From assembly GCF_001886715.1 (NCBI RefSeq), contig NZ_CP018082.1, positions 248,001 to 312,000 on the forward strand: a DNA stretch of 64,000 nt, in the 5' to 3' direction. The stretch is from Nocardia mangyaensis. Lineage in GTDB: Bacteria; Actinomycetota; Actinomycetes; Mycobacteriales; Mycobacteriaceae. The notes under the pieces were generated by a model. It worked only from the letters and a program-made list of their open reading frames with translations, ran no database searches and was not told the DNA's origin. Each line of letters begins with the position of its first letter. Positions within the stretch are counted from its first letter, which is position 1. The position numbers and the translations under genes are program-made. Shown piece after piece: positions 7,481 through 55,555 of this stretch.

Positions 7481-7664
7481 GGTCGGTGAACGGGTTGTCA
7501 ACGGGCTGGACGAATGGGTGCGTGCGTGCGGGCGGACCTGGACAGTTGGGCTGGGGGTTTCGCTCGGGGCGCGGGTGCCCGTCAGATGTGCGGTGGATGC
7601 TCTCGAGGTGGGGTCGTGCGGGGCTGGGTCTGGTGGGTGTCCAGGGACTTGGCACGATGAGTGG

Positions 7665-8927
7665 GTGGCTGATTGCAGTGAGTTCGCGTTCGCGGTGGGT
7701 ACCCGTCTCGATGGTGGGCGCCATGGTCGGACCGGGGTGATCAGTACCCCGCACGGGGAGATCGCCACGCCCGCCTTCATTCCGGTGGGAACCAAGGCCT
7801 CGGTGAAGGCGGTTCTGCCGGAGGCGATGAAGGAGCTGGGCGCGCAGGCGCTGCTGGCCAACGCCTATCACCTGTACCTGCAGCCCGGCGCGGACATCGT
7901 CGACGAAGCGGGCGGGCTCGGGAAGTTCATGAACTGGCCGGGGCCGACATTCACCGACAGCGGTGGCTTTCAGGTGATGTCGCTCGGGGTCGGGTTCAAG
8001 AAGGTGCTCGCGATGGAAGCCGTCGACATCCGCTCCGATCAGGTGATCGCCGCGGGCAAGGAACGGCTGGCCACCGTCGACGACGACGGGGTCACCTTCC
8101 GCTCGCACCTGGACGGCTCCAAGCACCGGTTCACGCCCGAGGTGTCGATGGGCATCCAGCACGAGCTCGGCGCCGACATCATGTTCGCCTTCGACGAGCT
8201 GACCACGCTGATGAACACCCGTGGCTACCAGGAGAAATCGCTGCAGCGCACGCACGAGTGGGCCCAGCGCTGCATCGACGAGCACGAACGTCTCACCGAC
8301 AAGCGGGCCCACCGCCCGTATCAGGCGCTGTTCGCGGTGATCCAGGGCGCGCAGTACGAAGACCTGCGGCGCAAGGCCTGTCGCGAGCTGGAGACGATCC
8401 GCGGCAGTGGCGGAACGGAATTCGACGGCTACGGCATCGGCGGTGCGCTGGAGAAGCACAATCTGGGCACCATCGTCGGCTGGTGCTGCGACGAGCTGCC
8501 CGAGCACAAGCCGCGCCACATGCTCGGCATCAGCGAACCCGAGGACATGTTCACCGCCATCGAGAACGGCGCGGACACCTTCGATTGCGTCAACCCCTCG
8601 CGGGTGGCCCGTAACGCGGCGATCTACGTGGACGAGGGCCGGTTCAACATCAACACCAGCCGGTTCCGTCGCGATTTCACCCCGATCGACGAGAACTGTG
8701 ACTGCTACACCTGCGCGCACTACACCCGCGCCTACCTGCATCACCTGTTCAAGGCCAAGGAGATGCTCTCGGCGACGCTGTGCACGATCCACAACGAGCG
8801 GTTCACCGTGCGGCTGGTCGACCGGATCAGGGCCAGCATCGAGGGCGGCTACTTCGACGCGTTCAAGGCCGAGTTCCTCGGGCAGTGGCAGGGCCGGATC
8901 AAGGCGCCCGGGTCGACGTCGTCGTGA
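7665..8927 (+). CDS. tgt: tRNA-guanine transglycosylase
   Basis: Swaps guanine 34 in the anticodon of tRNAs for Asp, Asn, His and Tyr for a queuine-type base. The protein is 420 residues from GTG 7665. The start is placed there because homology-like sequence begins soon after, and the open frame upstream runs through repeat DNA. Visible hallmarks are Asp98 in FTDSGGFQVMS (general base in the family), the nucleophile Asp in DTFDCVNPSR, and the zinc site CDCYTCAHYTRAYLHH near the C-terminus. The segment after MSLG contains an insertion typical of actinobacterial enzymes. A YhhQ transporter lies convergent and GluQRS is 2 kb away. No precursor synthesis genes are in the window, so salvage of imported precursor is inferred. 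Confidence 0.95.
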   Translation: MADCSEFAFAVGTRLDGGRHGRTGVISTPHGEIATPAFIPVGTKASVKAVLPEAMKELGAQALLANAYHLYLQPGADIVDEAGGLGKFMNWPGPTFTDSGGFQVMSLGVGFKKVLAMEAVDIRSDQVIAAGKERLATVDDDGVTFRSHLDGSKHRFTPEVSMGIQHELGADIMFAFDELTTLMNTRGYQEKSLQRTHEWAQRCIDEHERLTDKRAHRPYQALFAVIQGAQYEDLRRKACRELETIRGSGGTEFDGYGIGGALEKHNLGTIVGWCCDELPEHKPRHMLGISEPEDMFTAIENGADTFDCVNPSRVARNAAIYVDEGRFNINTSRFRRDFTPIDENCDCYTCAHYTRAYLHHLFKAKEMLSATLCTIHNERFTVRLVDRIRASIEGGYFDAFKAEFLGQWQGRIKAPGSTSS

Positions 8928-8943
8928 CCCGGGCGCCGCGCGC

Positions 8944-9717
8944 TCAGTCGTGCAGCGCGTCGCGTTTCGCCGGGGCGTAGGTGGGTTCGGACTTCTTGAG
9001 CAGCGCGATCACCCGATAGGTGACGGGCAGCATCACCACCTCGCACAGCGTCTTCCAGAGGAAGCCGATGATCACGAAGTTGACGAACGACTGCCAGGTA
9101 TCGATGCCGATGGCGGTGGCGGCGATCGAGCAGAAGATGAGGGTGTCGGCGAATTCGCCGATCACGGTGGAACCGATCAGCCGGGCCCACAGGTGCTTTT
9201 CCTTGGTGCGTTCCTTGATCAGCACCAGCGTCGCCGAGTTCAGCAGCTGGCCGACGAAATACCCGGCCAGGCCGGCGAGCACCAGTTGCGGCGTGGTGCC
9301 GATGACGGTGCGGAAGGCGTCCTGGTTGTCGTAGAAGCCCGCGGGTGGCAGCTGGATGGCGATCGCGAACGCGCCCACGGTGAGCAGCAGCGCGGCGAAG
9401 CCGGTGTAGATGGCGTGGCGGGTGGCGCGGAAGCCGTAGACCTCGCTGAGCACATCACCGAGGATGTAGGCCAGCGGGAACAGGAAGAAGGCGGCGTCGG
9501 TGGTGATCGGCAGGAGTTGCAGTGGTCCGAGCATCGCCGAGTGGTCGGCGAAGAACTCCACGCCCTTGGTGGCGCAGATGTTGGAGATGATCAGCGTCGC
9601 GGTGAACGCGGCGACGATGACCGGATAGAACCCCCGCGCAGCCTGGGCGAACGCCGCATGGTTCGGCGCGGGGTGCCCAGTTTCGGTGGGTTTGTCGAGA
9701 GCGTTTGCATCAGTCAC
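8944..9717 (-). CDS. VUT-family queuosine precursor transporter (YhhQ-like)
   Basis: A 257-residue integral membrane protein with about six hydrophobic segments. It carries family features such as FTATLIISNICATKGVEF near the N-terminus and ILGDVLSEVYGFRATRHAIY in the middle. YhhQ/QPTR proteins import queuosine precursors (queuine, preQ0 or preQ1). It is convergent with tgt, with only 16 bases between stop codons, which fits import followed by tRNA insertion. The GTG at 9717 has AGAGGG just upstream; a longer in-frame extension to 9945 would add a low-complexity arginine-rich tail and is not supported. Confidence 0.9.
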   Translation of the reverse strand: MTDANALDKPTETGHPAPNHAAFAQAARGFYPVIVAAFTATLIISNICATKGVEFFADHSAMLGPLQLLPITTDAAFFLFPLAYILGDVLSEVYGFRATRHAIYTGFAALLLTVGAFAIAIQLPPAGFYDNQDAFRTVIGTTPQLVLAGLAGYFVGQLLNSATLVLIKERTKEKHLWARLIGSTVIGEFADTLIFCSIAATAIGIDTWQSFVNFVIIGFLWKTLCEVVMLPVTYRVIALLKKSEPTYAPAKRDALHD

Positions 9718-9779
9718 GCCCTCTATCCAACCAAGGTCGCGCCGCGCCACGGGCCCGGGTTGTGGAATAGGCTGTAGTA

Positions 9780-10349
9780 ATGACGAATCCCGGCGATTCC
9801 GACGAGTGGTGGAAGCAGTACGGCGGCTCCGGCGTGTCGCCGGAGTCCGGCGCGCCGGGTTCGGTGCCGCAGTACCCGACCGCCCCGCCGTCGCAGCCTT
9901 CCCAGCCGCAGTCTCCCAGCTACCCGTCGGCGCCGCAGTACCCACAGCAATCCGCTCCGCCGCCCTCGCAGCCGCAGTACCCGAACTACCAGCAACCGCA
10001 GGCGGGGGCGCCGCAGTACCCGCAGCAGCCCGGCTACGGCGGGTACCCGCAGGCCGGTGGCTACCAGCCCTATGGCGCCTACCCCCAGCCGCAGGGCACC
10101 AATGGTCTGGCCATCGCCTCGCTGGTGACCTCGCTGATCGGCATGTGCACCTGCATCGGATCGATCGTCGGCATCGTGCTCGGTGTGATGGCGCTCAACC
10201 AGCTCAAGGAGCGCGGTGGTGAGGGTCGCGGGATGGCGCTGGCCGGCATCTGGATCGGTGCGATCACCCTGGTGCTCGGCCTTCTGTACGTGGTGTTCGT
10301 GATGGTCCTCGGCTTCGCCGGCGGGTGGGAAACCACGTCGACCTACTGA
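9780..10349 (+). CDS. DUF4190 membrane protein with Pro/Gln/Tyr-rich tail
   Basis: A 189-residue protein. The first about 105 residues are a disordered proline-, glutamine- and tyrosine-rich tail. Two membrane helices follow (NGLAIASLVTSLIGMCTCIG through the next hydrophobic run, and GIWIGAITLVLGLLYVVFVM), the DUF4190 double-helix pattern. Its function is unknown. Such proteins are abundant in actinobacteria, often beside RDD-domain proteins with similar tails, as here. It ends 16 bases before a strong bidirectional hairpin terminator. The tail resembles that of the convergent RDD protein, so the two may share a partner or localisation. Confidence 0.85.
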   Translation: MTNPGDSDEWWKQYGGSGVSPESGAPGSVPQYPTAPPSQPSQPQSPSYPSAPQYPQQSAPPPSQPQYPNYQQPQAGAPQYPQQPGYGGYPQAGGYQPYGAYPQPQGTNGLAIASLVTSLIGMCTCIGSIVGIVLGVMALNQLKERGGEGRGMALAGIWIGAITLVLGLLYVVFVMVLGFAGGWETTSTY

Positions 10350-10364
10350 CCCGCACAGACGACA

Positions 10365-10398
10365 ACAGGGGCGCTTCCGGATTCGGAAGCGCCCCTGT
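10365..10398. terminator. Bidirectional intrinsic terminator
   Basis: A perfect 15-bp stem (arms 10365-10379 and 10384-10398, AGGGGCGCTTCCG core) with a GATT loop, followed by TTTCTTTG on the plus strand. It sits between the convergent DUF4190 and RDD genes and can serve both. Confidence 0.9.
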
Positions 10399-10418
10399 TT
10401 CTTTGCGTCAGCCGCGAA

Positions 10419-11084
10419 TCAGCCCTTGACGACCTGCGTGCCGCCGGCGAACTTGTCGTGCCAGCCCTGCTTGTTCGGGTCCTGGGAGATGGTGACCATG
10501 ATGTAGATCGCCAGACCCAGACTGGCCAGGCTGCCGATGCAGGGGACCGCGCCGACGGCGACGAACAGGTTGCGCTTGAGCGACTGCTCCGGCGTCAGGT
10601 TCGGGGCGCCGCCGGGGGCGACGACGCGCAGCCCGAGGATCTTCTTGCCCAGCGAGGTGCCCTGGGTGACCTCCATGGCCACGAAGTAGCCGTAGAGCGC
10701 CAGCGAGCCGATGAATCCGGTTGCCAGCTGTACCGTGTTGCCGGAGAGGACGAGCGAGAGCACGATCGCGATCGGGATGCTCACGATCAGGTTGTCGATG
10801 ATGCGCGCACCGATCCGGATGCCCAGGTCGGCCGGGGTGACCCCACCGAATCCCTGCTGCCCGTAAGGGTCCTGACCGTAGCCCGCTTGCGGGTACGCTT
10901 CCTGCCCGTATCCGGGCTGTTGCTGCTGCTGGCCATAGGGATCGGCGCCGTAGCCGGGCTGAGGCTGGCCATAGGGCTGCTGCTGTCCGTATCCCGGCTG
11001 CTGCTGGCCGTAGGGATCCTGGCCGTAGCCGCCGGGCTGACCGCCCTGCGGGTACTGGTTGGGGTCGTAACCACCGCTGGTCAT
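10419..11084 (-). CDS. RDD-family membrane protein with Gly/Tyr/Gln-rich tail
   Basis: A 221-residue protein. The N-terminal 75 residues are repeats of the type [16 protein letters not shown], low-complexity and disordered. The RDD domain follows, with Arg in [12 protein letters not shown] and three hydrophobic segments ([28 protein letters not shown] and the last one ending [20 protein letters not shown]). RDD proteins are poorly defined; some are proposed to act in transport. It shares a terminator with the convergent DUF4190 gene, whose tail has a similar composition. Confidence 0.88.
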
Positions 11085-11127
11085 AGATTCGTCCTCGTCG
11101 TGATCAGTAGATCGGTCGATGCGTACG

Positions 11128-12063
11128 TTACGGACATCCCTCTGGTCGGAACAACCCGATAGGCTCGAGTATCCATGGTTTTCCGGGGATGTGTGTGGGG
11201 TCGAATACTTCGCGGAGCTCCGCTGTGGTCCGCGCGGAATACCCGAGCGAGTCGGCGATCGCGCTCAGTACGCCCTCGGGCGTGTTGCCCAGCGCGCGTT
11301 GATCCGAAAGGCTCACTGCCCCGTCACGTTTGGCCAATCGCTTGCCCTCCTGATTGAGCACGAGCGGCACGTGGGCGTAGGTCGGCGCGGCGTGTCCGAG
11401 TAGTTCGGCGAGGTAGGCCTGGCGGGGCGTGGACGGCAGCAAATCGTCACCGCGCACCACCTGGTCGATGCCTCCGGCGGCGTCGTCGACCACCACGGTC
11501 AGGTTGTAGGCGGGGATGCCGTCACCGCGGCGCAGCACCAGATCGTCGACGGCGCCGCGATAGCGGCCGTGCAGCTGATCGATGATCTCGTAGTCGGTGA
11601 CCTCGGCGCGCAAACGCAGGGCGGCGGGCCGACCTTCGGCGCGCCGGACGGCGCGCTGCGCCGCGGACAGGTGTCGGCAGGTGCCCGGATAGGCGCCCAT
11701 CGGGCCGTGCGGTGCCGTGGCGGCCTGCTGGATCTCGCGTCGGGTGCAGAAACACTCGTAGGTGTGTCCGGCGGTGATGAGTTCGGCGATGGCCGCCGCG
11801 TAGGCGGGCAGACGCTCGGACTGGTGGACGACGGGACCGTCCCAGTCGATGCCGATGGCGGCGAGGTCGTCGAGTTGACGCTCGGCGGCGCCGGGCCGGA
11901 CCCGGTCGAGGTCGTCGACCCGGAGAAGAAACCGCCGCCCGGTGGTTCGCGCGAACAACCAGGCGAGCACGGCGGTGCGCAGGTTCCCGATGTGCAGCTC
12001 ACCCGACGGGCTCGGGGCGTAGCGGCCCGCGCCCGGAGCATGGCTGGTCGACACTGCACCCAT
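11128..12063 (-). CDS. gluQ: Glutamyl-Q tRNA(Asp) synthetase
   Basis: GluQRS attaches glutamate to the queuosine base at position 34 of tRNA-Asp, not to the 3' end. The protein is 311 residues, has the class I HIGH-type signature [10 protein letters not shown] (about 21-30) and a KMSKS-like [10 protein letters not shown], and lacks the anticodon-binding domain of GluRS. A zinc site of the known YadB type is visible: Cys104, Cys106, Tyr125, Cys129. The start ATG at 12063 lies 1 base from the stop of the upstream DUF309 gene, so the two are probably co-transcribed. With tgt and the YhhQ transporter nearby, its substrate is made by the neighbourhood itself. Confidence 0.93.
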
Positions 12064-12064
12064 T

Positions 12065-12565
12065 CTAGGTGGATTCGGCGCGCAGCCTCGGCCGCAGCCG
12101 GTCCTCGGTGATCTCGGCGCCGGAATCGAGGGCGCCGAGCAGCTCGCGCGCGTGCGCGATCAGTCCGTCGCGGTCGACATCGTGGTGCTGGGCATTCGCC
12201 GGATACACCGTGAGCCGCTCGCTCGCGCGGCGCAGGAGGGTGCCCGCACCCTTGCGGTTTCCGCGCTGGATGTGGGTGATACCCACCGCGTATTGCGCCA
12301 GACCCTGCCAGAGCATCCGCTCGGCTACCGGCCCGTTCTTCCATGCCGCTTCCAATACCTCGTGCGCGTTGAATGCCAGACCATCGTCCAGCAGTTGCTG
12401 AGCGAAGGTCAGAGTTTGCTGGGGTGACAACTCGAGGTCGTCCGGAATTCGGGTCACTCCGGCACTGCCGGGCGGCAGTGGCCTGCCGAGTCGGTCGCGG
12501 GGACGGTCGTTGCGGGCACGACCTGCGGCGTCGCGGTCACGGGAGATCATTCCCCCATGATCCAT
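12065..12565 (-). CDS. DUF309 domain protein
   Basis: A 166-residue protein. The DUF309 core lies at about residues 50-120 (FAQQLLDDGLAFNAHEVLEA and MLWQGLAQYAVGITHIQRGN), an all-helical domain with conserved His-Glu and Gln residues and no established activity. The N-terminus is basic. The start is uncertain: ATG 12565 has GAGCAG upstream, whereas ATG 12550 would begin at MISRDRD, a more typical family start, but has its GGGGGA directly abutting. It ends 1 base before gluQ, so it is probably the first gene of that pair. No metabolic link to queuosine is known. Confidence 0.8.
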   Translation of the reverse strand: MDHGGMISRDRDAAGRARNDRPRDRLGRPLPPGSAGVTRIPDDLELSPQQTLTFAQQLLDDGLAFNAHEVLEAAWKNGPVAERMLWQGLAQYAVGITHIQRGNRKGAGTLLRRASERLTVYPANAQHHDVDRDGLIAHARELLGALDSGAEITEDRLRPRLRAEST

Positions 12566-44871: not shown

Positions 44872-45513
44872 TCAGAACTCGACGCGGGTCCAGCCGGCCG
44901 CGTCGGCCACGTCGGACTTGCCGGTGGTCCATTCCCAGATGATTCTCGCCACCTGCGCCGGATCGTCGATGGTGGTGCCGAAGTGGCGCTCCGGCGACCC
45001 GTCGCGGTATTCGAGGGTGTAGGGACCGTCGGGATCTCGATAGGTCTGGATGTAGCTCTGGTCGCCACGTTCGACGATCAGGTACGGGTTGGGGTCGGCC
45101 AGGCCGGCCACCCAGCGGTACGCCAATTCCTCGGTGAGATAAGGGAATTCGCCCGCACCGCCGTGAGTGACGGCGACCGGCACGTAGCCGGCCGGGTCGA
45201 TCAGCCAGGACAGCTGAGGGTCGTAGACGGCGTAGCCGCGCGGGGTGGCGAGGTCGAAGAGCAGGTTGCGGACGAAGCCGATCGCGTCGTAGGGCGAGGG
45301 CACGTAGAGCGTGTCCCCACTGGGACCGCCCACGGATTCGACGCTGAGGAACGTGTCGTCCACCGGTAGCTCGCTGTTGCGGGCGTTCAACTCGATGGTG
45401 ATCTCGGCGATCGCCTCGGACTCGGGCAGACCTTCCTGGGCGGCCAGGTACGCGTCCACCTCGTCGACGGAGCTGGCGACGCCGGACGGCAGAAGAATGT
45501 GGTCGTAGCTCAC
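44872..45513 (-). CDS. Conserved hypothetical protein, unrecognised
   Basis: A 213-residue acidic protein without a family I can name. No signal peptide or membrane helix is seen. Notable patterns are HILLPSGVASSVDEVDAYLA at the start, a predicted beta-rich middle (ELAYRWVAGLADPNPYLIVE) and a C-terminal FGTTIDDPAQVARIIWEWTT. The composition suggests a soluble domain, perhaps a two-repeat fold. GTG 45513 has GGGGG upstream. It is convergent with recR and divergent from the transglutaminase gene. Confidence 0.7.
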   Translation of the reverse strand: MSYDHILLPSGVASSVDEVDAYLAAQEGLPESEAIAEITIELNARNSELPVDDTFLSVESVGGPSGDTLYVPSPYDAIGFVRNLLFDLATPRGYAVYDPQLSWLIDPAGYVPVAVTHGGAGEFPYLTEELAYRWVAGLADPNPYLIVERGDQSYIQTYRDPDGPYTLEYRDGSPERHFGTTIDDPAQVARIIWEWTTGKSDVADAAGWTRVEF

Positions 45514-45687
45514 GGCCCCCACCCTACGGGGCGGTCGGTTCCTGGAAGGCCGCCAGGCCGAGCCCGCGGCGCCGGCCGCCACCACTATTGTGCGGCTGTG
45601 TTGCCTGCGGGTTTCGGGTTGGTGCCCGTCGGGAAACTCCGGTTTCGTCGGCCCGCGTGGCGCGGGTGGTCTGTGGTGAACTGGGTC

Positions 45688-48600
45688 ATGGGTATCAAGG
45701 TGTCACTCGAGCACCGGACCGCGTACTCCTTCGATCGGCTCGTCGAGGTGCATCCACACGAGGTCCGGCTGCGGCCCGCGCCACACTCGCGGACACCGAT
45801 CGAGGCGTATTCGCTCCAGGTGTCACCGGCCGAGCACTATGTGAACTGGCAGCAGGACGCGTTCGGTAATTTCGTTGCGCGCCTGGTGTTTCCGGAGCCG
45901 ACGCGGGAGCTGTCGATCACCGTCGGGTTGATCGCCGATCTCGAGGTGGTCAACCCGTTCGACTTCTTCGTCGAGGACTACGCCGAGTACTTCCCCTTCG
46001 GCTACCCCGACGCGCTGGCCGACGACCTGGAGCCGTATCTGCGCCCGGTCGACGAGGGCGAGCCGGGATCGGGGCCGGGGGACCTGCTGCTGGACTGGGT
46101 GCGGGTGCACCGCGCGCAGGGGCGGATCCGTTCCATCGACTACCTGGTGGAACTCAACTACGCGCTGCGCAACACCGTCGACTACACCGTGCGGATGGAA
46201 CCGGGCGTGCAATCGCCGGACCACACGCTGCGCGCCGCGCTCGGCTCCTGCCGTGATTCGGCGTGGTTGCTCGTCGGCATCCTGCGTGAGCTGGGGCTGG
46301 CGGCACGCTTCGTCTCCGGCTACCTGGTGCAGCTGACCTCGGACACCCCCGCCCTGGACGGACCGTCCGGGCCGAGCGCCGACTTCACCGACCTGCACGC
46401 CTGGACCGAGGTGTACCTACCCGGCGCCGGGTGGATCGGCATGGACCCCACCTCGGGTCTGTTCGCCGGTGAGGGCCACATTCCGCTGGCCGCGACCCCG
46501 CATCCCGGCGCCGCCGCGCCGATCACCGGCGCCACCGGAATCACCGAGGCCACCCTGGATTTCAGCAATGTGGTGCGCCGGGTCCACGAGGACCCGCGAG
46601 TCACGCTGCCCTACACCGAATCCCAGTGGGAACGCATCACCGCCTCCGGCGCGGCCATCGACGCGCGGATGGCGGCCGCCGACGTCGGCCTCACCATGGG
46701 CGGCGAGCCCACCTTCGTCTCCATCGACGACCAGATGAGCGCCCAGTGGACCACCGACGCCGACGGGCCCCACAAACGCGAACGTGCCGTCGATCTCGCC
46801 GACCGTCTCCGCTCGATCTACGCCCCCACCGGGCTGGTCCAGTACCGCCAGGGCAAGTGGTATCCCGGAGAGCCGTTGCCCCGCTGGGAGATCGCCATCG
46901 CCTGGCGTGCGGACGGGGAGCCGGTGTGGAAACGCCAGGATCTCCTCGCCGACCCGTGGACCCCGGTCGTGGGTTCGGCGCCGGGCACGGTTGTCGGCCG
47001 GTCGTCCGACGCGGGTGCCTCATCGAGCGCGGTCCGCCCGCCGAATCCGAAACCAGACGATTCCGGCGGCCTCGGCTCCGCGATGTCGACCGCAGGCCGA
47101 CCCGTCGACGGCAAGCAGATCGCCGCATCCCAACCGCTCAACGCCGCGCCTGTCCGTTCGGCCGGTGCGCAGCCGCTCCACGCCTCGACCGGGCTGCTGG
47201 CACCACAGAATTCGGCCGCTGATGCCGATGCGGCGAAGTCGCTGATCGCCCACATCGCGGGCACGCTGGGTCTCCCCGACGGACAGGTGCGCCCGGCCTT
47301 CGAGGACCCTCTGGCTCGGCTCGCCGCCACCGTCACCGCCCCCTACGGCGAACCGCCCGCGGCCGATCTCGATCCGGTCGCGGATTCCCCCGAGGCTCGC
47401 CGCACCCTGCTCGGCCGCCTCGACGAGTCCGTCAATGAGCCGACCGCCTTCGTACTGCCCATCCATCGCAGAGCTGACGGCGCGGGCTGGGCCAGTGCCG
47501 ATTGGCAGTTGCGCCGCGGTCGCGACGACGACGGTGGTCCGGGGCGGATCGTGCTCGCCGACGGTGATTCCCCTGCGGGGCTTCGTCTTCCGCTGAACTC
47601 GGTATCCTGGCACACCCCGCCGGTACTCCCCGAGGCCGATCCGCTCTTCCAGGGCCCCCTGCGGCTGCCGCGCGAAGAACCACCGGCCGTGCTCGAATCG
47701 GCGGACTTCACGCCGACCACCGCGCTCGTCGCCGAGGTCAGGGCGGGCCGGTTGCATGTGTTCCTGCCGCCGGTCACCGAGCTGGACGACTTCCTCGACC
47801 TGATCGCCAAGGTGGAACAAGCCGCGGCGGCGATCGGTCAGCCGGTGGTGCTCGAGGGCTACGCGCCGCCGAGTGACGCACGCCTGCACACCTTCTCGGT
47901 GACGCCCGACCCCGGCGTGATCGAGGTGAACATCATGCCGACCAGCTCCTTCGCCGAGCAGGCCGACGTGCTGAGCACCCTCTACGAGCAGGCCAGGCTG
48001 GCCCGGCTGAGCACCGAGTCCTTCGATGTCGACGGCACCCACGGTGGCACCGGCGGCGGCAATCACATCACCCTCGGCGGGATCAGTCCCGCGCGCTCAC
48101 CGCTGCTGCGCCGCCCCGATCTGCTGGTCTCGATGCTCACCTACTGGCAACGTCATCCGGCGCTGTCCTACCTGTTCGCCGGTCGCTTCATCGGCCCGAC
48201 CTCGCAGGCGCCTCGCGCCGACGAGGGGCGCGAGGGCGCGCTCTACGAACTCGAGATCGCCTTCGCCGAGATCGCCCGCCTCACTGCCGAGCAGGCGGTG
48301 GGTGCGGCCACGCCGTCGGAGATCCAGTCGGCCCCTTGGCATATCGACCGCGCTCTGCGACACCTGCTCACCGACCTCACCGGCAACACCCACCGGGCCG
48401 AGTTCTGCATCGACAAGCTCTACAGTCCCGATTCCGCGCGCGGTCGCCTCGGGCTGCTGGAACTGCGCGGCTTCGAGATGCCACCGCACTTCCAGATGGC
48501 GATGGTGCAGTCCCTGCTGGTTCGCGGCCTGGTCGCCATGTTCTGGGACCAGCCCTACCGCGCCTCCCTGCTCCGCCACGGCGACAACCTGCACGGCCGC

Positions 48601-49302
48601 TACCTGCTGCCGCACTTCCTGATGAGCGATATCGCCGAGGTGGCGGCCGACCTGCGCGCCAACGGCATCGACTTCGACACCAGCTGGCTCGACCCGTTCA
48701 CCGAATTCCGCTTCCCCCGGATCGGAACGGCGATGATCGGCGACGTCGAACTGGAACTGCGCGGCGCGATCGAACCCTGGCTGACCCTCGGCGAGCAGAC
48801 CACCGGCCAAGGCACCGCCCGCTACGTCGACTCCTCGGTCGAGCGTCTCCAGGTGCGTGTGGTCGGCGCCGACCGCGGCCGCTACGTGGTGACCTGCAAC
48901 GGCATGCCGATTCCCCTGCTGGCCACCGACAAGACCGACGTGCAGGTGGCCGGAGTCCGCTACCGCGCCTGGCAACCTCCGAACTCCCTGCACCCCTCCA
49001 TCACAGTCGACGCCCCCTTGGTCTTCGACCTGGTGGACGCCGCCACCGGCCTGTCCCACGGCGGCTGCACCTACCACGTCGTCCACCCAGGTGGTCGCGC
49101 CTTCGACGACGCCCCCGTCAACGCGGTAGCCGCCCAATCCCGCCGAAATCGCCGTTTCGAAGCAGCCGGACATACGGTGAACCCGATGGACCCCGCCGAA
49201 CTCCGTGCGAAAATCGCCGCACAGTCGACCGACCTGGGCGCGCCAGGCATCCTGGACCTACGCCGCGCAAGAACCGTGTGGAACTGGACAACCAACAGAT
49301 AG
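45688..49302 (+). CDS. Transglutaminase-like protein fused to DUF2126
   Basis: A 1204-residue protein. The N-terminal bacterial transglutaminase-associated domain and papain-like core carry the full triad: Cys188 in GSCRDSAWLL, His237 in DLHAWTEVYLPG and Asp253 in GMDPTSG. The large DUF2126 domain follows (GLTMGGEPTFVSIDDQMSAQW, later GTGGGNHITLGG and TSSFAEQADVLSTLYEQARL). An Ala/Ser/Pro-rich insert lies at about 430-530. Such proteins are found with ATP-grasp/alpha-E proteins and have been proposed to make or cut amide bonds in an uncharacterised peptide or peptide-tagging pathway. ATG 45688 has no clear ribosome site; GTG 45676 is in frame. Confidence 0.88.
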   Translation: MGIKVSLEHRTAYSFDRLVEVHPHEVRLRPAPHSRTPIEAYSLQVSPAEHYVNWQQDAFGNFVARLVFPEPTRELSITVGLIADLEVVNPFDFFVEDYAEYFPFGYPDALADDLEPYLRPVDEGEPGSGPGDLLLDWVRVHRAQGRIRSIDYLVELNYALRNTVDYTVRMEPGVQSPDHTLRAALGSCRDSAWLLVGILRELGLAARFVSGYLVQLTSDTPALDGPSGPSADFTDLHAWTEVYLPGAGWIGMDPTSGLFAGEGHIPLAATPHPGAAAPITGATGITEATLDFSNVVRRVHEDPRVTLPYTESQWERITASGAAIDARMAAADVGLTMGGEPTFVSIDDQMSAQWTTDADGPHKRERAVDLADRLRSIYAPTGLVQYRQGKWYPGEPLPRWEIAIAWRADGEPVWKRQDLLADPWTPVVGSAPGTVVGRSSDAGASSSAVRPPNPKPDDSGGLGSAMSTAGRPVDGKQIAASQPLNAAPVRSAGAQPLHASTGLLAPQNSAADADAAKSLIAHIAGTLGLPDGQVRPAFEDPLARLAATVTAPYGEPPAADLDPVADSPEARRTLLGRLDESVNEPTAFVLPIHRRADGAGWASADWQLRRGRDDDGGPGRIVLADGDSPAGLRLPLNSVSWHTPPVLPEADPLFQGPLRLPREEPPAVLESADFTPTTALVAEVRAGRLHVFLPPVTELDDFLDLIAKVEQAAAAIGQPVVLEGYAPPSDARLHTFSVTPDPGVIEVNIMPTSSFAEQADVLSTLYEQARLARLSTESFDVDGTHGGTGGGNHITLGGISPARSPLLRRPDLLVSMLTYWQRHPALSYLFAGRFIGPTSQAPRADEGREGALYELEIAFAEIARLTAEQAVGAATPSEIQSAPWHIDRALRHLLTDLTGNTHRAEFCIDKLYSPDSARGRLGLLELRGFEMPPHFQMAMVQSLLVRGLVAMFWDQPYRASLLRHGDNLHGRYLLPHFLMSDIAEVAADLRANGIDFDTSWLDPFTEFRFPRIGTAMIGDVELELRGAIEPWLTLGEQTTGQGTARYVDSSVERLQVRVVGADRGRYVVTCNGMPIPLLATDKTDVQVAGVRYRAWQPPNSLHPSITVDAPLVFDLVDAATGLSHGGCTYHVVHPGGRAFDDAPVNAVAAQSRRNRRFEAAGHTVNPMDPAELRAKIAAQSTDLGAPGILDLRRARTVWNWTTNR

Positions 49303-49330
49303 CAACCACCTACAGGAAAACCGATCCACC

Positions 49331-49506
49331 CCCACCCAGCCACGCACATCCCGACCCCGAGGAGGGATCGCCGACGCAGTCGGCGGTTCGCGCCCGTCCC
49401 GACGATCAGGCGCCGTTTCGTCCGCGACGAAGGAGCAAGAAACGGTGCTTGATCGTCGGGACCGCCGGGGGCGCGAACCTCGAGCGCGCCAGCGCTCCAA
49501 CAAACA
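49331..49506 (-). repeat. Palindromic dispersed repeat, copy R3, inverted
   Basis: Inverted relative to R1, with about 90 percent identity along most of its length. The stem arms are 49396-49419 and 49439-49462. Two adjacent base pairs that are G-C in R1 (GTGGC/GCCAC) are T-A here (GTTTC/GAAAC), so pairing is kept although the bases changed. The element fills the 218-bp gap between the DUF2126 gene and the ATP-grasp gene, ending just before the latter's AGGAGG. Confidence 0.8.
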
Positions 49507-49520
49507 CAGGAGGCCCTTCG

Positions 49521-52500
49521 GTGACTGAGCGCGACGAGGCGCTACGGGACGGGAACCGGCAGCCACCGGGCATCCGAGCCCAGGTGGCCGAACAGTTCGC
49601 CCGGTATCGAGCCGAGAGCAAGAGGGGGTCGCGGTTCGACGAGTGCGGCAGGCCGACCGAGACCTACTACGACGAGCTCGTCGACGGGCGCGGCCGGGTC
49701 AGGTCGATGTGGTCGGAGCTGTCGGCCGACTTCGTCGACCAGGGCACCGGCGGGATCAGCCGAATCGACCACCGGGTGCGCAGGCAGATCGAGGACGACG
49801 GCGTCACCTACACCGAGGTCGGCCTCGGCGACGACACCGCCACCCCACGCCCCTGGCGCCTCGACCCCATCCCGCTGCTGGTCTCCGCCGACGACTGGAC
49901 CCGCCTCGAAACCGGTCTCGTGCAGCGCTCACTGGTCCTCGACGAGGTCCTCACCGATGTCTACGGCCCGCGCAGGCTGCTGAGTTCGGGCCTGCTGCCG
50001 CCGCAGGTGGTGTTCGGCAGCACCGGTTATGTCCGTGCCGCGCACGGCATCATGATCCCCGGCACCCACCAGTTGTTCCTGCACGCGTGTGACATCAGCC
50101 GCTGGAGCGACGGCCGGTTCCGGGTGCTGGCCGACTGGGCACAGGCTCCCTCGGGCGCCGGGTACGCGCTGGCCGACCGGCGGGTGGTCGCCGAGGCCAT
50201 TCCCGAGGCGTTCGAGCACGCGGGCCCGCGCCCGCTCACCCCGTTCGCCCGCGCCATGCGGTTGATGCTCGAGGAAGCCGCACCCGAGCTGGCCGATGGT
50301 GCGGAACCGGTGGTCGTGGTGCTGAGCCCGGGCTCGCACTCCGAAACCGCGTTCGATCAGGCGTATCTGGCGCAGATGCTCGGATTTCCGCTGGTCGAGA
50401 GCGCTGATCTGGTGGTGCGCGACGGCGCGCTGTGGATGCGCTCACTGGGCAGTCTGGAACGGGTCGACGTGGTGCTGCGGCGGGTGGACGCCGAGTTCTC
50501 CGATCCGCTGGATCTGCGTCCCGATTCGCGCCTCGGGGTGGTCGGGCTGGTCGAGGTGCTGCGCCGTGGTGCGGTCACCGTGGTGAACACCCTCGGCAGC
50601 GGACTGCTGGAATCGCCCGCGCTGAGCGCGTTCCTGCCGCGCATCGCCCGCTCGATCCTCGGCGAGGACCTGCAGCTCGACGGCACGCCCGCATACTGGG
50701 GCGGCGATGACACCGAGCGCGCGCACCTGGTGTCGCACGTCGGTGACCTGGTCATCCGGTCCGCCGTCGACGGGTCGACGATCTTCGGTCCCAGCCTGGC
50801 CGCGGCCGAACGGGACGAGCTCGCCGCCCGGATCGAGGCCGAGCAGTGGAAGTGGGTGGGCCAGGAACCCGCCGAATTCTCGGTCGCCCCCGCGGTCGAA
50901 GACGAGGCCGGGATCGCGCCGGTGCCGGTCGGCATGCGGCTGTTCTCGCTGGCTCGCCGCGGTGGATACACCGCGATGTCGGGCGGGCTCGGTCAGCAGC
51001 GGATGCGGCTGGAACCGACCCGCAGCGTGATCAAGGTGGCGGCCAAGGACATCTGGGTGCGCGCCGCCCCCGCCACGGCGCCCGCCGTGGGCGCCGAGGC
51101 CCCGCACGAGGAGCGCCTGCGACGCGCCGTGCCGGTCGTCGAGGCGATCAGCTCCCCGCGCGTGCTCAACGACCTGTTCTGGATGGGCCGCTACAGCGAA
51201 CGCGCCGAATCGGTGGTCCGCTTGCTCGCCGCCACCCACGACGTCTACCAGGACTACCGCTACCGCCCCTGGCTCGACGGCGCCGAGGCCCTGCCGATCC
51301 TCATGCGCGCTCTCTCGGTCACCACCGGAACCGTCGCCCCGGAATCGGTGCTGCCGAGTGCCCGCGCGGCCGCCCTGGTCCGCGTCCACTCGCCGATCGA
51401 GGCGACGACGCCGGGACCCGCCGTCGACCCGGAATCGGCTGCGGCACCCGTCGGTTCGCCGGAACCCGCGGCAGCGCGACCTTCCCCGGCGCCGACCCGC
51501 GACCCCGATGCCTCGGCCGCCGAGGTGTCGGCACGAGACGACGGGGACTCGGGTGCGGCTGAATCGGATACCGACGACGCCGACACCGAGTCGCCATGGG
51601 AGCGCGCGGGCACCAGCGCTTTGGCTCGTGCGCTGCGGACCACGGGTACTACGGCCGAACGCGGTGCCGAGCCGGTGGCAGCGGGCGAACCGCCCATCGC
51701 GCGAACCAGGCAGACGCAGGGGCAGTTCACCCATCGAGCAATGGATTCCAGTGGTGAAGGCGGAGCCACGCGACGAGCGGTGGCCGGCGCGTCGGCCGAG
51801 GGGTTCCACTACCTGGCCGCCCTCACCGGCAATCGGGAGTTGCCGGGATCGTTGTCGCATGCCGTCGACCGCTATGGCGCGGCCGCGCGTGCCGTGCGTG
51901 ACCAGCTCTCCGGGGACACCTGGATGATCGTCGGCGCGGTGGACCGCGCGCTGGCCGAATTCCGCAGTGCCAACAGCGAACAGGAGAACGCGCTCTCGGC
52001 GGTGCACTCGTTGACGTTGGCCGCGCTGCTGTCGCTGTCGGGGATCGGCGCGGAATCGCTGGTGCGCGACACCGGCTGGTACGTCACGGATATCGGCAAG
52101 CGGGTCGAACGCGGACTCGCGCTCACGTCGCTGTTCAATTCCGCGCTGACGCAGGCGAAATCGGCGGAGGTCGAGCGGGTGGTGGCCGAGGCGGTGCTCG
52201 CCGCCACCGAGTCGGCCGTGAGTTACCGTCGCCGCCACCGCGGTTCGGCCCACGTCGCCGCGCTGGCGGGCCTGCTGCTGTTCGACCCGGGAAACCCGCG
52301 CTCGCTGGTGTATCAGCTCGACCGCCTCGAAGCCGACTTCCAGGCGCTGCCGGGTGGTTCCGGCGCGTCCCGGTCCCAGCGGCTGCTCGCCGATGCCCAG
52401 CGCATGCTGCGCCGCGTCGACCCGGCCGATCTGGAACAGACCGACGACGACGGCGTCCGCACCGAACTGGTGGAGCTGCTGGAAGGGGTGCACTTGCGAT

Positions 52501-52592
52501 TGCGCAAGCTGTCCGAATCGTTCGAGACCACCAAACTCGCTGCCCCGGCCAGCATCCAGCCGCTGTGGGGCAACACCAGGATGGTCGGATGA
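49521..52592 (+). CDS. Circularly permuted ATP-grasp (type 2) fused to alpha-E domain
   Basis: A 1023-residue fusion. The N-terminal ATP-grasp-like part (about 30-510) shows PRPWRLDPIPLLVSADDW, VFGSTGYVRAAHGIMIPGTH, VLSPGSHSETAFDQAYLAQM and LGSGLLESPALSAFLPRIAR. The all-helical alpha-E domain begins near 540 with LNDLFWMGRYSERAESVVRL and resumes at about 755-1010, the two parts being separated by an Ala/Pro/Thr/Asp-rich insert of roughly 150 residues. Fused or adjacent pairs of these domains are the core of a proposed ATP-dependent amide-bond-forming system. GTG 49521 has AGGAGG 7 bases upstream; it overlaps the next gene by ATGA. Confidence 0.88.
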   Translation: MTERDEALRDGNRQPPGIRAQVAEQFARYRAESKRGSRFDECGRPTETYYDELVDGRGRVRSMWSELSADFVDQGTGGISRIDHRVRRQIEDDGVTYTEVGLGDDTATPRPWRLDPIPLLVSADDWTRLETGLVQRSLVLDEVLTDVYGPRRLLSSGLLPPQVVFGSTGYVRAAHGIMIPGTHQLFLHACDISRWSDGRFRVLADWAQAPSGAGYALADRRVVAEAIPEAFEHAGPRPLTPFARAMRLMLEEAAPELADGAEPVVVVLSPGSHSETAFDQAYLAQMLGFPLVESADLVVRDGALWMRSLGSLERVDVVLRRVDAEFSDPLDLRPDSRLGVVGLVEVLRRGAVTVVNTLGSGLLESPALSAFLPRIARSILGEDLQLDGTPAYWGGDDTERAHLVSHVGDLVIRSAVDGSTIFGPSLAAAERDELAARIEAEQWKWVGQEPAEFSVAPAVEDEAGIAPVPVGMRLFSLARRGGYTAMSGGLGQQRMRLEPTRSVIKVAAKDIWVRAAPATAPAVGAEAPHEERLRRAVPVVEAISSPRVLNDLFWMGRYSERAESVVRLLAATHDVYQDYRYRPWLDGAEALPILMRALSVTTGTVAPESVLPSARAAALVRVHSPIEATTPGPAVDPESAAAPVGSPEPAAARPSPAPTRDPDASAAEVSARDDGDSGAAESDTDDADTESPWERAGTSALARALRTTGTTAERGAEPVAAGEPPIARTRQTQGQFTHRAMDSSGEGGATRRAVAGASAEGFHYLAALTGNRELPGSLSHAVDRYGAAARAVRDQLSGDTWMIVGAVDRALAEFRSANSEQENALSAVHSLTLAALLSLSGIGAESLVRDTGWYVTDIGKRVERGLALTSLFNSALTQAKSAEVERVVAEAVLAATESAVSYRRRHRGSAHVAALAGLLLFDPGNPRSLVYQLDRLEADFQALPGGSGASRSQRLLADAQRMLRRVDPADLEQTDDDGVRTELVELLEGVHLRLRKLSESFETTKLAAPASIQPLWGNTRMVG

Positions 52593-53485
52593 GCAGGCGT
52601 TATCGGGTGGTGCACCGGACCACCTACAGCTACTCCGACGAGGTCACCAGCTCCTACGGCCGCGCCTATCTCACCCCGCGCGAATTCGCCGGGCAGCGCT
52701 CGCTCGAACACGACATCTACATCGACCCGGTGCCCTCGGACCGTTCCGTCGGTACCGACGTCTACGGCAACACGACCACGTATTTCCATGTGACAGCCGA
52801 ACATCGCAAGCTCGAGGTCACCGGCGAATCGCTCGTCGACGTCGACGGTGCCCATCCGGCGACGATCGAGGGCGCCGACATCCCGTGGGAATCGGCGCGG
52901 CCGAGCACTACCACGGGGCCGCTCGCCGTCGAGTTCACCCTGGACCTGCTGCCGGCCGAGATCACCCCGGAGGTGGTGGCCTACGCCGCGCAGAGCTTCC
53001 CGCCGGGTCGCCCGCTGCTCGCGGCGGTCACCGAGCTCAACACCCGCATCCACGACGATTTCCGCTACCGCTCCGGCTCGACCACGGTGAGCACCAGCGT
53101 CGCGGACGTGTTCGCCGCGCGCGAGGGCGTCTGCCAGGACTTCGCCCGAATCGGCGCCGCCTGCCTGCGCGCGGTGGGCCTCGCCGCCCGCTACGTCTCG
53201 GGGTATCTGGCCACCGATCCGCCGCCGGGCAAGGAACACATGGTCGGCGTGGACGCCACCCACGCGTGGGCCGCGGTCTGGCTACCCGGCGCCGACGAGA
53301 CCGACCGCGCCGGCCGCTGGATCGCCTTCGACCCCACCAACGACCAGTTCGCCGACGAGCGGTACGTGACGGTGGCGTGGGGTCGCGATTATCAGGACGT
53401 TCCGCCCCTGCGTGGCATCATCTACACCGACGCCAAACAGTCCACAATCACGGTTTCGGTCGATGTAGCCCCGGTGGAGGTGTAG
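52589..53485 (+). CDS. Transglutaminase-family protein
   Basis: A 298-residue protein. The N-terminal transglutaminase-associated beta-domain opens with RRYRVVHRTTYSYSDEVTSS, the core carries Cys182 in REGVCQDFARIG, His in DATHAWAAVWLPG and Asp in AFDPTNDQF. It is the second transglutaminase of the operon, shorter and without DUF2126. ATG 52589 overlaps the ATP-grasp gene stop; an earlier in-frame start at 52565 would lie inside that gene. In the proposed system it would hydrolyse or transfer peptide/amide linkages; no substrate is known. Confidence 0.92.
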   Translation: MSRRYRVVHRTTYSYSDEVTSSYGRAYLTPREFAGQRSLEHDIYIDPVPSDRSVGTDVYGNTTTYFHVTAEHRKLEVTGESLVDVDGAHPATIEGADIPWESARPSTTTGPLAVEFTLDLLPAEITPEVVAYAAQSFPPGRPLLAAVTELNTRIHDDFRYRSGSTTVSTSVADVFAAREGVCQDFARIGAACLRAVGLAARYVSGYLATDPPPGKEHMVGVDATHAWAAVWLPGADETDRAGRWIAFDPTNDQFADERYVTVAWGRDYQDVPPLRGIIYTDAKQSTITVSVDVAPVEV

Positions 53486-53489
53486 TCCC

Positions 53490-54545
53490 TTGCGTGATTT
53501 CGTGTGCCCGAACTGCGGTCAGCAGTTGGCTTTCGAGAATTCGGTCTGTCTGTCGTGCTCGAGCCGGCTCGGTTTCAGCCTGCACGAGCGTGCCCTCGTG
53601 GTGATCGGTGATCCGCCCGGTGACGCGGCCGTCGACCACGCGGGCGGTGTCGTCGACCGCGATCGGTTCCGGCTGTGCGACAACCTGCATGTGGCGCAAT
53701 GCAATTGGCTGGTCTCGGAAGGGAACGCCCCCGGGCCGAAGCTGTGTGCCTCCTGCGCACTCACCCGGACCAGGCCCAACGATGCCGACGTGGCCGGTCT
53801 GGCCGCCTTCGCCGAGGCCGAAGCGGCCAAGCGGCGGTTGATCTTCGAACTGGCCGAACTCGGCCTGCCGATCGTCGGGCGTGACAGCGACCCGCACGGC
53901 CTGGCCTTCGACCTGCTCTCCAGCCGCACCGACGGCGTCATGACCGGTCACGTCGACGGGGTGATCACCCTCGACCTGGCCGAGGCCGACGACCCGCATC
54001 GTGAACAGTTGCGCATCGAGATGGCCGAGCCCTACCGCACCCTGCTCGGCCATTTCCGCCACGAGATCGGCCACTATTACTTCCCGGTCCTGGTCACCGA
54101 GGACGACGAGTTGCGACGCTTCCGTGATCTGTTCGGCGACCCCTTCGCCGACTACCAGGCGGCACTGGACCGGCACTACTCCCAGGGCGCGCCCGCGGGC
54201 TGGGAACGCGACTACGTGTCCTCCTACGCCACCATGCACGCCGCCGAGGACTGGGCCGAGACCTTCGCCCACTACCTGCACGTCCGCGACACCCTCGACA
54301 CCGCGGCCGCCTTCGGCCTCGCCCCCGCGGGCGCCACGCTCGACCGGCCCCAGGTCGGCCGCGCCGGATTCGACAAGATCATCGAGCTGTGGCTGCCGCT
54401 GGCCTGGTCGCTGAACATGGTCAACCGCTCGATGGGGCGCGACGACCTGTACCCCTTCGTCCTCCCGGAGCGGGTGCTGGAGAAGATGCGCTTCGTGCAC
54501 GACCTGTGCACCGCCACCGCGCCGGAGGCGCTCGCCTCGGCGTAG
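53490..54545 (+). CDS. Zinc-ribbon domain zinc metallopeptidase
   Basis: A 351-residue protein. The N-terminal zinc ribbon has Cys6, Cys9, Cys20, Cys23 (FVCPNCGQQLAFENSVCLSC) and further Cys in CASCALTR. The metallopeptidase domain carries HEIGHYYFPVL, with the first His at about residue 191 and a downstream acidic helix HAAEDWAETFAHYLH that should give the third ligand. Genes of this family accompany the transglutaminase/ATP-grasp/alpha-E cluster. TTG 53490 starts 4 bases after the previous stop, so it is the last gene of the operon. Cytoplasmic: no signal or membrane segment. Confidence 0.88.
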   Translation: MRDFVCPNCGQQLAFENSVCLSCSSRLGFSLHERALVVIGDPPGDAAVDHAGGVVDRDRFRLCDNLHVAQCNWLVSEGNAPGPKLCASCALTRTRPNDADVAGLAAFAEAEAAKRRLIFELAELGLPIVGRDSDPHGLAFDLLSSRTDGVMTGHVDGVITLDLAEADDPHREQLRIEMAEPYRTLLGHFRHEIGHYYFPVLVTEDDELRRFRDLFGDPFADYQAALDRHYSQGAPAGWERDYVSSYATMHAAEDWAETFAHYLHVRDTLDTAAAFGLAPAGATLDRPQVGRAGFDKIIELWLPLAWSLNMVNRSMGRDDLYPFVLPERVLEKMRFVHDLCTATAPEALASA

Positions 54546-54608
54546 ACGCGCGGTGATGCCTCGCGATTTCTGGTGCGACCGGGGTCACATTCAGCTATCC
54601 TCCCACTT

Positions 54609-54626
54609 TGAGACGATCGCGTCTCA
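54609..54626. promoter_or_regulatory. Inverted-repeat operator upstream of the BASS transporter
   Basis: TGAGACG-ATCG-CGTCTCA, a perfect 7-bp dyad located 44 bases before the transporter start and about 10 bases after a possible -10 (TATCCT at 54594-54599). Its position fits a repressor site of TetR or similar type. No regulator gene is adjacent. Confidence 0.55.
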
Positions 54627-54670
54627 GAACCCGGCGGTTCCCGCGTCCGGGCTGCTCGATGAGGATGGCT

Positions 54671-55555
54671 ATGAACTCTCCCTTGGTGTCCGTCGGACTC
54701 CCGCTGGCACTCGCGGTGATCATGTTCGGACTCGGTCTGTCGCTGACCGTCGCCGACTTCACCCGGATCGCGAAGACCCCGCGCATCGTCGCCATCGCCC
54801 TGATCTGCCAGGTGCTCCTGCTCCCGGCGATCGCGTTCGGGCTGGTGCTGCTGTTCGGGCTGTCGCCGATCCTCGCGGTCGGCATGATGCTGCTCGCCGC
54901 CTCGCCCGGCGGGACCACCGCGAATCTGTACAGTCACCTGTTCCGTGGTGACGTGGCGCTGAACGTGTCACTGACCGCGGTCAATTCGGTGATCGCGGTG
55001 ATCACCGTGCCGGTGGTGACCAACTTCGCCATCGGCTACTTCGAGCCCGACGACGGTGCCGGTTCGCTCGGACTGCAACTGGGCAAAGTGGTGCAGGTGT
55101 TCGCCATCGTGCTCGTGCCGGTCGCGATCGGCATGCTGGTGCGTCACCTCTGGCCCGCGTTCGCCGATCGGATGGACCGGCCGGTGCGCATCGGTTCGGC
55201 GCTGGTCCTGCTGCTGGTGATCGTGGGAACCGTCGTCGCCGAACGCGACACCCTCGGTTCCTCGCTGGCCGACGTCGGCGCCATCGCCGTGGCCTTCTGC
55301 CTGTTCAGCCTGACCATCGGCTACTTCGTACCGCGCCTGCTCGGCGCGGCCGAAAGGCAGTCCATCGCGTGCTCGATGGAGATCGGCATCCACAACAGCA
55401 CCATCGCCATCACCATCGCCATCAGCGTGCTCGACAGCACCGAGATGGCGATCCCCGCGGCCGTGTACGGCGTGCTGATGTTCCCGCTCGCGGCGATCTT
55501 CGGCTGGCTGATCACTCGTCGCCGGGTGCGCTCGGCACCGGTCACCGTCGAGTGA
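54671..55555 (+). CDS. Bile acid:sodium symporter (BASS) family transporter
   Basis: A 294-residue membrane protein with about nine hydrophobic helices. BASS hallmarks are MFGLGLSLTVADFTRIAKTP, the crossing-region ASPGGTTANLYSHLFRGDVA and EIGIHNSTIAITIAISVL with conserved Glu and Asn. Family members move bile acids, pyruvate, pantothenate or other organic anions with sodium; the substrate here is unknown. ATG 54671 was chosen because GAGG lies 6 bases upstream; the frame before it (from 54608) is arginine-rich and lies over the operator. Convergent with gatD. Confidence 0.9.
   Translation: MNSPLVSVGLPLALAVIMFGLGLSLTVADFTRIAKTPRIVAIALICQVLLLPAIAFGLVLLFGLSPILAVGMMLLAASPGGTTANLYSHLFRGDVALNVSLTAVNSVIAVITVPVVTNFAIGYFEPDDGAGSLGLQLGKVVQVFAIVLVPVAIGMLVRHLWPAFADRMDRPVRIGSALVLLLVIVGTVVAERDTLGSSLADVGAIAVAFCLFSLTIGYFVPRLLGAAERQSIACSMEIGIHNSTIAITIAISVLDSTEMAIPAAVYGVLMFPLAAIFGWLITRRRVRSAPVTVE

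What the first reader, a model, noticed from the sequence alone, without database searches (positions are those of the whole stretch)
45688..54545. Four-gene transglutaminase, ATP-grasp/alpha-E, transglutaminase, metallopeptidase system
DUF2126-transglutaminase, circularly permuted ATP-grasp fused to alpha-E, a second transglutaminase and a zinc-ribbon metallopeptidase lie in one direction, three of them overlapping or within 4 bases. The families are established as genomic partners and have been proposed to build and cut amide bonds, but no product is known. All catalytic residues I can check (two Cys-His-Asp triads, HExxH, zinc ribbon) are intact, so the system is probably active. This is the best candidate for an undescribed biochemical pathway here.
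Basis: partly seen in the sequence, partly recalled or inferred. Interest (0 to 1): 0.75.

Follow-up and report, generated by a model that had tools for sequence, protein, structure and literature searches.

The report
Nocardia amide-ligase operon with pseudo-ATP-grasp
A known but unexplained set of bacterial amide-bond enzymes sits here; one of its two supposed bond-making domains has lost key catalytic residues yet is strongly conserved, and an intact relative lies far away on the same chromosome.

Summary
The four genes are real, intact and collinear. They belong to a system predicted in print since 2008, so this is no undescribed pathway; its product is unknown. Two corrections. DUF2126 is itself a ligase-type domain with a predicted glutamine-synthetase-like fold. 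And the window's ATP-grasp is very probably dead: the Mg-site Glu and Asn are Ala and Trp, the Lys is Arg, the Gly-rich loop is gone. Glu and Asn are replaced in 76 of 79 fused ORFs from loci (2 unaligned, 1 keeps them) and 120 of 120 database proteins; 141 of 141 stand-alone relatives keep all. The altered domain is the most or second most constrained of six parts compared. In 148 Nocardia genomes all 53 with DUF2126 and all 51 with the peptidase also carry the intact stand-alone ATP-grasp cluster, here 1.23 Mb away; 24 keep the fused protein without it. Best reading: DUF2126 and the stand-alone ATP-grasp make an amide product, and the pseudo-ligase with its transglutaminase binds and cuts it. 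No function is shown.

The parts
45688..49302 (+). Transglutaminase-like domain fused to DUF2126 (~330-1204), a domain with predicted glutamine-synthetase-like fold: the only ligase-type domain of the window whose conserved residues are in place
49521..52592 (+). Circularly permuted ATP-grasp domain with degenerate active site, fused to Alpha-E, which carries a long low-complexity insert
   Evidence: Pfam; phmmer hit to PDB 3n6x, 213 bits, E 6.9e-62; 3n6x E161 and N163 are A and W here, K368 is R, GGYG is lost; dN/dS 0.059-0.101 over the ATP-grasp codons in 5 pairs
52589..53485 (+). Stand-alone transglutaminase-like (papain-fold) enzyme; start overlaps previous stop (ATGA)
   Evidence: Pfam; Cys-His-Asp in 85 of 85 matches
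53490..54545 (+). Double zinc ribbon + Peptidase_Mx HExxH metallopeptidase
54608..55555 (+). SBF/BASS-family transporter gene 62 bp downstream; candidate fifth gene in this clade only
   Evidence: Pfam SBF; seen in the locus of 11 of 141 genomes, all with DUF2126 and the peptidase; not in the locus of 4 sister genomes that lack both

Best explanation
The locus is a Nocardia copy of the predicted circularly permuted amidoligase system. The GS-like DUF2126 domain (window) and an intact stand-alone CP-ATP-grasp (1.23 Mb away) are the ATP-driven makers of an amide-linked product. The window's ATP-grasp-Alpha-E protein is a conserved pseudo-ligase that keeps fold and a binding or assembly role but not ATP chemistry; with the adjacent transglutaminase-like cysteine enzyme it recognises and cuts or exchanges the amide. 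The zinc peptidase serves the DUF2126 branch. Published transcriptomics in other bacteria place related clusters under nitrogen-limitation control, so a nitrogen-linked peptide or amine conjugate is the likeliest product class. Shown here: gene content, residue losses and their spread, strong constraint, correlated presence. Inferred: loss of catalysis, the make and cut roles, the nitrogen link in Nocardia. Unknown: the product.
For: Residues: stand-alone proteins keep E, N, K and GGxG in 141 of 141 (21 from loci, 120 database, the latter mostly Nocardia and relatives); fused ORFs from loci have another residue at E and at N in 76 of 79, and database proteins in 120 of 120. A stand-alone homologue from the Yersinia bercovieri Anbu operon releases phosphate from ATP (PMC6376114, passages; its residues not checked here). 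Constraint: ATP-grasp codons dN/dS 0.059-0.101, peptidase 0.128-0.166, 5 pairs. 148 Nocardia genomes: DUF2126 with stand-alone 53/53, peptidase with stand-alone 51/51, DUF2126 with peptidase 49 (4 and 2 alone). Dependent models preferred on a murT tree, LR 38-76. G060, counted as lacking DUF2126, keeps a broken scrap of its C-terminal end just before the fused gene, a sign of loss. Both ATP-grasp kinds lie in one cluster in L129, L134, L145, L150, L158-L160, L162-L165. Nitrogen: P. putida PP_2688 and PP_2685 log2 3.99 and 4.44 on nitrate versus ammonium (PMC8050072); B. cenocepacia DUF404/407, DUF403, transglutaminase and large transglutaminase genes -6.0 to -9.4 in an ntrC mutant (PMC5491218).
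Against: No biochemistry of a window protein or close orthologue of the ligases turned up. Lost residues do not prove loss of all ATP chemistry: Lys is kept in 18 of 79 fused ORFs and a GG pair stands in the loop stretch of 17 of the 78 that lack GGxG, L152 even reading SGGRG. One fused ORF keeps all residues (L167). 24 genomes keep the fused protein with no stand-alone one, so it is no obligate subunit of it; 7 have the reverse. Co-expression pull-downs with the Yersinia Anbu operon proteins found no specific interaction (PMC6376114). The nitrogen evidence is from other phyla; I did not verify that the B. cenocepacia 'large protein' is DUF2126; a GlnR-motif test in Nocardia was inconclusive. 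The DUF2126 model is of moderate confidence and its Z barely exceeds what unrelated models reach.
Confidence: 0.5

Rival explanations
1. All four window enzymes are active and the ATP-grasp is a ligase: a self-contained make-and-cut system.
For: Domain scores are high; the DUF2126 family is predicted to form peptide bonds (PMC2588565); Lys is kept in 18 of 79 fused relatives.
Against: Mg-site Glu and Asn are replaced in the window protein, in 76 of 79 fused ORFs and 120 of 120 database proteins; DUF2126 never occurs without the unlinked stand-alone cluster in 148 genomes.
Confidence: 0.12
2. The fused ATP-grasp still binds a nucleotide and uses it otherwise (sensor or non-canonical transferase), as some pseudokinases do (recalled analogy).
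For: Lowest or second lowest dN/dS of six parts; first Asp kept in 119 of 120 database proteins and 75 of 79 loci ORFs; replaced Asn site is Trp in 119 of 120 database proteins.
Against: In the wider set the replaced positions differ (W 39, R 31, L 4 of 79) and the Lys site is R, K, A, V, T or I, so no alternative site is shared by all.
Confidence: 0.2
3. The genes work in peptidoglycan amidation with the neighbouring MurT/GatD pair.
For: In 56 of 67 Nocardia loci with the fused gene in the fetched stretch it lies directly before gatD-murT; in 11 it lies on their far side.
Against: 18 of 141 loci read ybaB-recR-orphan-gatD-murT with none of the system genes between (20 of the 141 were fetched as murT only); 56 of 148 genomes lack the set; of 80 named peptidase loci only 3, all Nocardia, have gatD or murT in the flanks.
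Confidence: 0.05
4. The second transglutaminase is chiefly a surface serine protease, as claimed for M. tuberculosis Rv2569c.
For: PMC11081392 (abstract and passages) reports cleavage of casein and E-cadherin and a cell-wall location.
Against: The family here has Cys-His-Asp in 85 of 85 matches and its start overlaps the ATP-grasp-Alpha-E stop; by eye no signal peptide. Orthology to Rv2569c is recalled, its sequence was not compared.
Confidence: 0.07

Closest known systems
Predicted CP-ATP-grasp / GS-like ligase / Alpha-E / transglutaminase system of Iyer et al. (Rv2566 named in PMC2588565, 2008; 2009 paper recalled)
   Same: Same domain set: transglutaminase+DUF2126, CP-ATP-grasp, Alpha-E, transglutaminase
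   Different: The window's CP-ATP-grasp is fused to Alpha-E and degenerate, and the intact partner is unlinked. Whether the 2009 paper noted inactive members I could not check (not held)
Anbu operon (ATP-grasp, Alpha-E, transglutaminase, Anbu; PMC5666114 and PMC6376114, passages)
   Same: Stand-alone ATP-grasp, Alpha-E and transglutaminase, as in the unlinked cluster L026
   Different: No Anbu gene recognised by eye beside either cluster (no profile searched); DUF2126 and Peptidase_Mx are added
PDB 3n6x, putative glutathionylspermidine synthase
   Same: Homologous CP-ATP-grasp domain, 213 bits
   Different: 3n6x has E161, N163, K368 and GGYG; the window protein has A, W, R and no such loop
Glutathionylspermidine synthetase/amidase (recalled)
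   Same: Logic of a ligase paired with a cysteine amidase
   Different: No sequence test made here; its amidase is of another family (recalled)

Membership tests
Predicted CP-amidoligase system (Iyer et al.) | DUF2126 fused to transglutaminase-like domain | tested here: met
Predicted CP-amidoligase system (Iyer et al.) | CP-ATP-grasp with Alpha-E and transglutaminase in the neighbourhood | tested here: met
Predicted CP-amidoligase system (Iyer et al.) | Anbu-type NTN peptidase | not tested
   No Anbu profile was searched
Catalytic ATP-grasp ligase | Mg2+-site Glu and Asn | tested here: not met
   A and W in the window; role of the residues recalled from glutathionylspermidine synthetase
Catalytic ATP-grasp ligase | ATP-site Lys and Gly-rich loop | tested here: not met
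   R and no GGxG in the window
Catalytic ATP-grasp ligase | ATP turnover | not testable with these tools
   Needs protein
GS-fold carboxylate-amine ligase (DUF2126) | Glutamine-synthetase-like fold | tested here: met
GS-fold carboxylate-amine ligase (DUF2126) | Conserved acidic, His and Arg site residues | tested here: inconclusive
   E340, E746, N748, H793, E925, R927 invariant in 48; mapping onto GS sites is by motif from memory
Papain-fold transglutaminase-like enzyme | Cys-His-Asp triad | tested here: met
Papain-fold transglutaminase-like enzyme | Acyl transfer rather than hydrolysis | not testable with these tools
   Needs protein
Peptidase_Mx zinc peptidase | HExxH and zinc ribbon | tested here: met

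The most novel reading that the evidence does not exclude
The pseudo-ATP-grasp-Alpha-E protein is a product reader: an ATP-grasp fold that gave up catalysis to bind the amide product and present it to its transglutaminase partner for cleavage. Nocardia species with the full set are producers; the 24 that keep the fused protein without any stand-alone ligase, DUF2126 or peptidase (in 21 of 21 examined with transglutaminase 2 beside it) would be consumers or detoxifiers of a product made by others.
Probability: 0.13. Interest if true: 0.8.

Novelty: new variant of a known kind. Interest (0 to 1): 0.52.

Why it matters
The product of this widespread system has stayed unknown since it was predicted in 2008-2009. 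The data here say which proteins to assay (stand-alone ATP-grasp and DUF2126 rather than the fused ATP-grasp), that two unlinked loci must be studied together, and point to natural knock-outs: Nocardia species with the full set, with partial sets and with an empty site at the same position. If the pseudo-ligase is a product reader it would be a new use of the ATP-grasp fold.

Tried and rejected

A loss order: I had thought the fits gave peptidase, DUF2126, stand-alone, fused. They do not bear that out. They say that the stand-alone cluster is not lost while DUF2126 or the peptidase is present (rate 0.000), but in the stand-alone/fused fit the fused gene is lost faster from the joint state (0.068) than the stand-alone one (0.020). 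The claim is withdrawn and the probability of the novel case lowered a little for it.

The sets were typed from the tables; the fused set took in the DUF2126 genomes as given, because the hit list was cut; one search shows at least two CP-ATP-grasp matches in each of those 53 genomes, of which one is the stand-alone kind, so DUF2126-with-fused (and its LR of 51.4) rests on match counts rather than on a listed hit for each. G016 and G052 have further weaker CP-ATP-grasp matches not looked at. In 'fused' is defined by alignment (over 150 residues beyond the Alpha-E start). L159_6413 was misaligned. One search stopped with an error in the sixth pair after one row; five pairs are used. In the phylum sample 21 genomes match Peptidase_Mx at E 0.001, 17 over cut-off; only the 17 are counted.

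Full report
Observation. The window is 248001-312000 of a 7.31-Mb single-contig genome. Close relatives of its proteins are named Nocardia, e.g. 98% to N. mangyaensis for the fused protein. The four genes are intact and collinear.

The ATP-grasp. The nearest solved relative by sequence is 3n6x (213 bits). Where 3n6x has VLEDN...PSG and VVK...GSGGYG, the window has VLADW...PSG and VIR...DGSTIFG. I extracted CP-ATP-grasp frames from the loci at hand and aligned 100 of them with 240 database proteins. Stand-alone proteins: E, N, K and GGxG in 21 of 21 from loci and 120 of 120 from the database. Proteins running on into Alpha-E: Ala at the Glu site in 120 of 120 database proteins (all listed ones close to the window). 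In 79 ORFs from loci of Actinomycetota, Caballeronia/Paraburkholderia and an Enterobacter plasmid, Glu and Asn are both replaced in 76, unaligned in 2 and kept in 1 (L167, a 736-aa frame with only part of Alpha-E). Exact GGxG is absent in 78 of 79, but a GG pair remains in that stretch in 17 of these, mostly Mycobacterium (L152 reads SGGRG), and Lys is kept in 18 of 79. The Glu/Asn loss therefore marks a family, not a recent decay. Between the window and five relatives the ATP-grasp codons have dN/dS 0.095, 0.087, 0.059, 0.091 and 0.101: the lowest of six parts in three pairs and second lowest, after the first transglutaminase domain (0.090 and 0.083), in two. It is a kept pseudo-ligase. A stand-alone homologue of the Yersinia Anbu operon does release phosphate from ATP (PMC6376114, passages).

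Where the intact one is. The same genome has ATP-grasp, Alpha-E and transglutaminase genes in L026 (about 1531200-1534700), 1.23 Mb from the window cluster. In other Actinomycetota (L158-L160, L162-L165), in Caballeronia (L129, L134, L145) and on an Enterobacter plasmid (L150) both kinds stand in one cluster.

Co-occurrence. In 148 genomes of the genus: DUF2126 in 53, Peptidase_Mx in 51, Alpha-E in 92, CP-ATP-grasp over cut-off in 92. Sorting the Alpha-E and ATP-grasp hits gives stand-alone in 68 (the same 68) and fused in 85 (partly by match counts, see Tried and rejected). All 53 and all 51 are within the stand-alone set; 49 genomes have both DUF2126 and peptidase, 4 only the first, 2 only the second; 24 have the fused protein without a stand-alone one, 7 the reverse, 56 nothing. 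On a murT tree of 141 genomes parsimony needs 16, 19, 20 and 12 changes for DUF2126, peptidase, stand-alone and fused, and dependent models beat independent ones: DUF2126 with stand-alone LR 62.5, peptidase with stand-alone 66.1, DUF2126 with peptidase 76.4, DUF2126 with fused 51.4, stand-alone with fused 38.3 (4 df). This is a one-gene FastTree, midpoint rooted, with several rates at their bounds. G060 keeps a scrap of the DUF2126 C-terminal end (residues 1137-1204, in two pieces) before the fused gene although no DUF2126 match is scored there, which speaks for loss.

Site. Of the Nocardia loci fetched, the fused gene lies directly before gatD-murT in 56 and on their far side in 11; 18 show ybaB-recR-orphan-gatD-murT with none of the system genes between (20 of 141 were fetched as murT alone). 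In the 21 of 24 fused-only genomes that could be read, transglutaminase 2 stands beside the fused gene in all 21.

Wider sample. In 296 genomes of the phylum (own genome included) 17 of 17 with Peptidase_Mx over cut-off and 12 of 12 with DUF2126 also have Alpha-E, against 48 of 296 overall; 11 of the 12 DUF2126 genomes have the peptidase. The peptidase is over a megabase from the rest in G407 and G448. Of the 80 best named Peptidase_Mx loci (of 454 candidates) 47 have an ATP-grasp of either kind and 39 DUF2126 in the flanks; of the 51 with both 10-kb flanks 31 have either.

Mechanism. Shown: gene set, residue losses, constraint, correlated presence. Inferred: DUF2126 and the stand-alone ATP-grasp make an amide product; the pseudo-ligase with transglutaminase 2 binds and cuts or exchanges it; the peptidase works in the DUF2126 branch. 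The fused-only genomes argue that the pseudo-ligase is not merely a subunit of the stand-alone ligase. Nitrogen: PP_2685 and PP_2688 of P. putida rise on nitrate (PMC8050072, table passage); a DUF404/407, DUF403, transglutaminase, large-transglutaminase cluster of B. cenocepacia falls in an ntrC mutant (PMC5491218, passages); a marine survey groups the same domains with urea metabolism (PMC3597751, passages). None of this is Nocardia. Against a stable complex: pull-downs with the Yersinia Anbu operon proteins found no specific interaction.

What is in print. Library searches: (listings), with passages read. No product for this system and no statement that the fused ATP-grasp is inactive turned up in what I saw. 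Iyer et al. 2009 is not held, so I cannot say that it did not note this. Rv2569c, which I recall as the orthologue of transglutaminase 2, was reported as a serine protease (PMC11081392, abstract and passages); a Cys-His-Asp triad fits that label poorly. The Pseudomonas rlo operon (ATP-grasp, inactive membrane transglutaminase, aspartic protease; PMC12239564, passages) is an analogue in logic, with a RimK-related ATP-grasp, not this family.

Verdict. Real, a known kind, part of a larger set, with one non-obvious feature: a strongly conserved pseudo-ligase. Interest 0.52.

Noticed in passing
L150 (NZ_CP116251.1, Enterobacter roggenkampii plasmid) 3153-12344: Five-gene version (intact ATP-grasp, Alpha-E, transglutaminase family protein with DUF2126, fused ATP-grasp-Alpha-E, transglutaminase) on a 90-kb IncFII plasmid from blood, between arsC and an IS26 transposase.
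   Followed up: partly
window 54608-55555: SBF/BASS transporter gene next to the peptidase in 11 Nocardia loci; not in the locus of 4 sister genomes lacking DUF2126 and the peptidase.
   Followed up: partly
L267 (G060) 8159-8361: Scrap of the DUF2126 C-terminal end in two pieces before the fused gene, in a genome without a scored DUF2126 gene: trace of a lost gene. Described only.
   Followed up: partly
L029 (G087) 5005-8338: DUF2126 gene reads in more than one frame; this genome also lacks the peptidase: possibly a decaying copy. Not mended.
   Followed up: no
L167 (G261), frame at 7125 on the minus strand: The one long ATP-grasp frame that keeps the catalytic residues and runs on into a partial Alpha-E match: a separate fusion.
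   Followed up: no
window 44872-45585 (-): Orphan gene without Pfam or NCBIfam match, kept next to recR in genomes with and without the system.
   Followed up: partly
L036 and L037 (G006): Peptidase_Mx lies on another contig than the other three genes in this genome.
   Followed up: no
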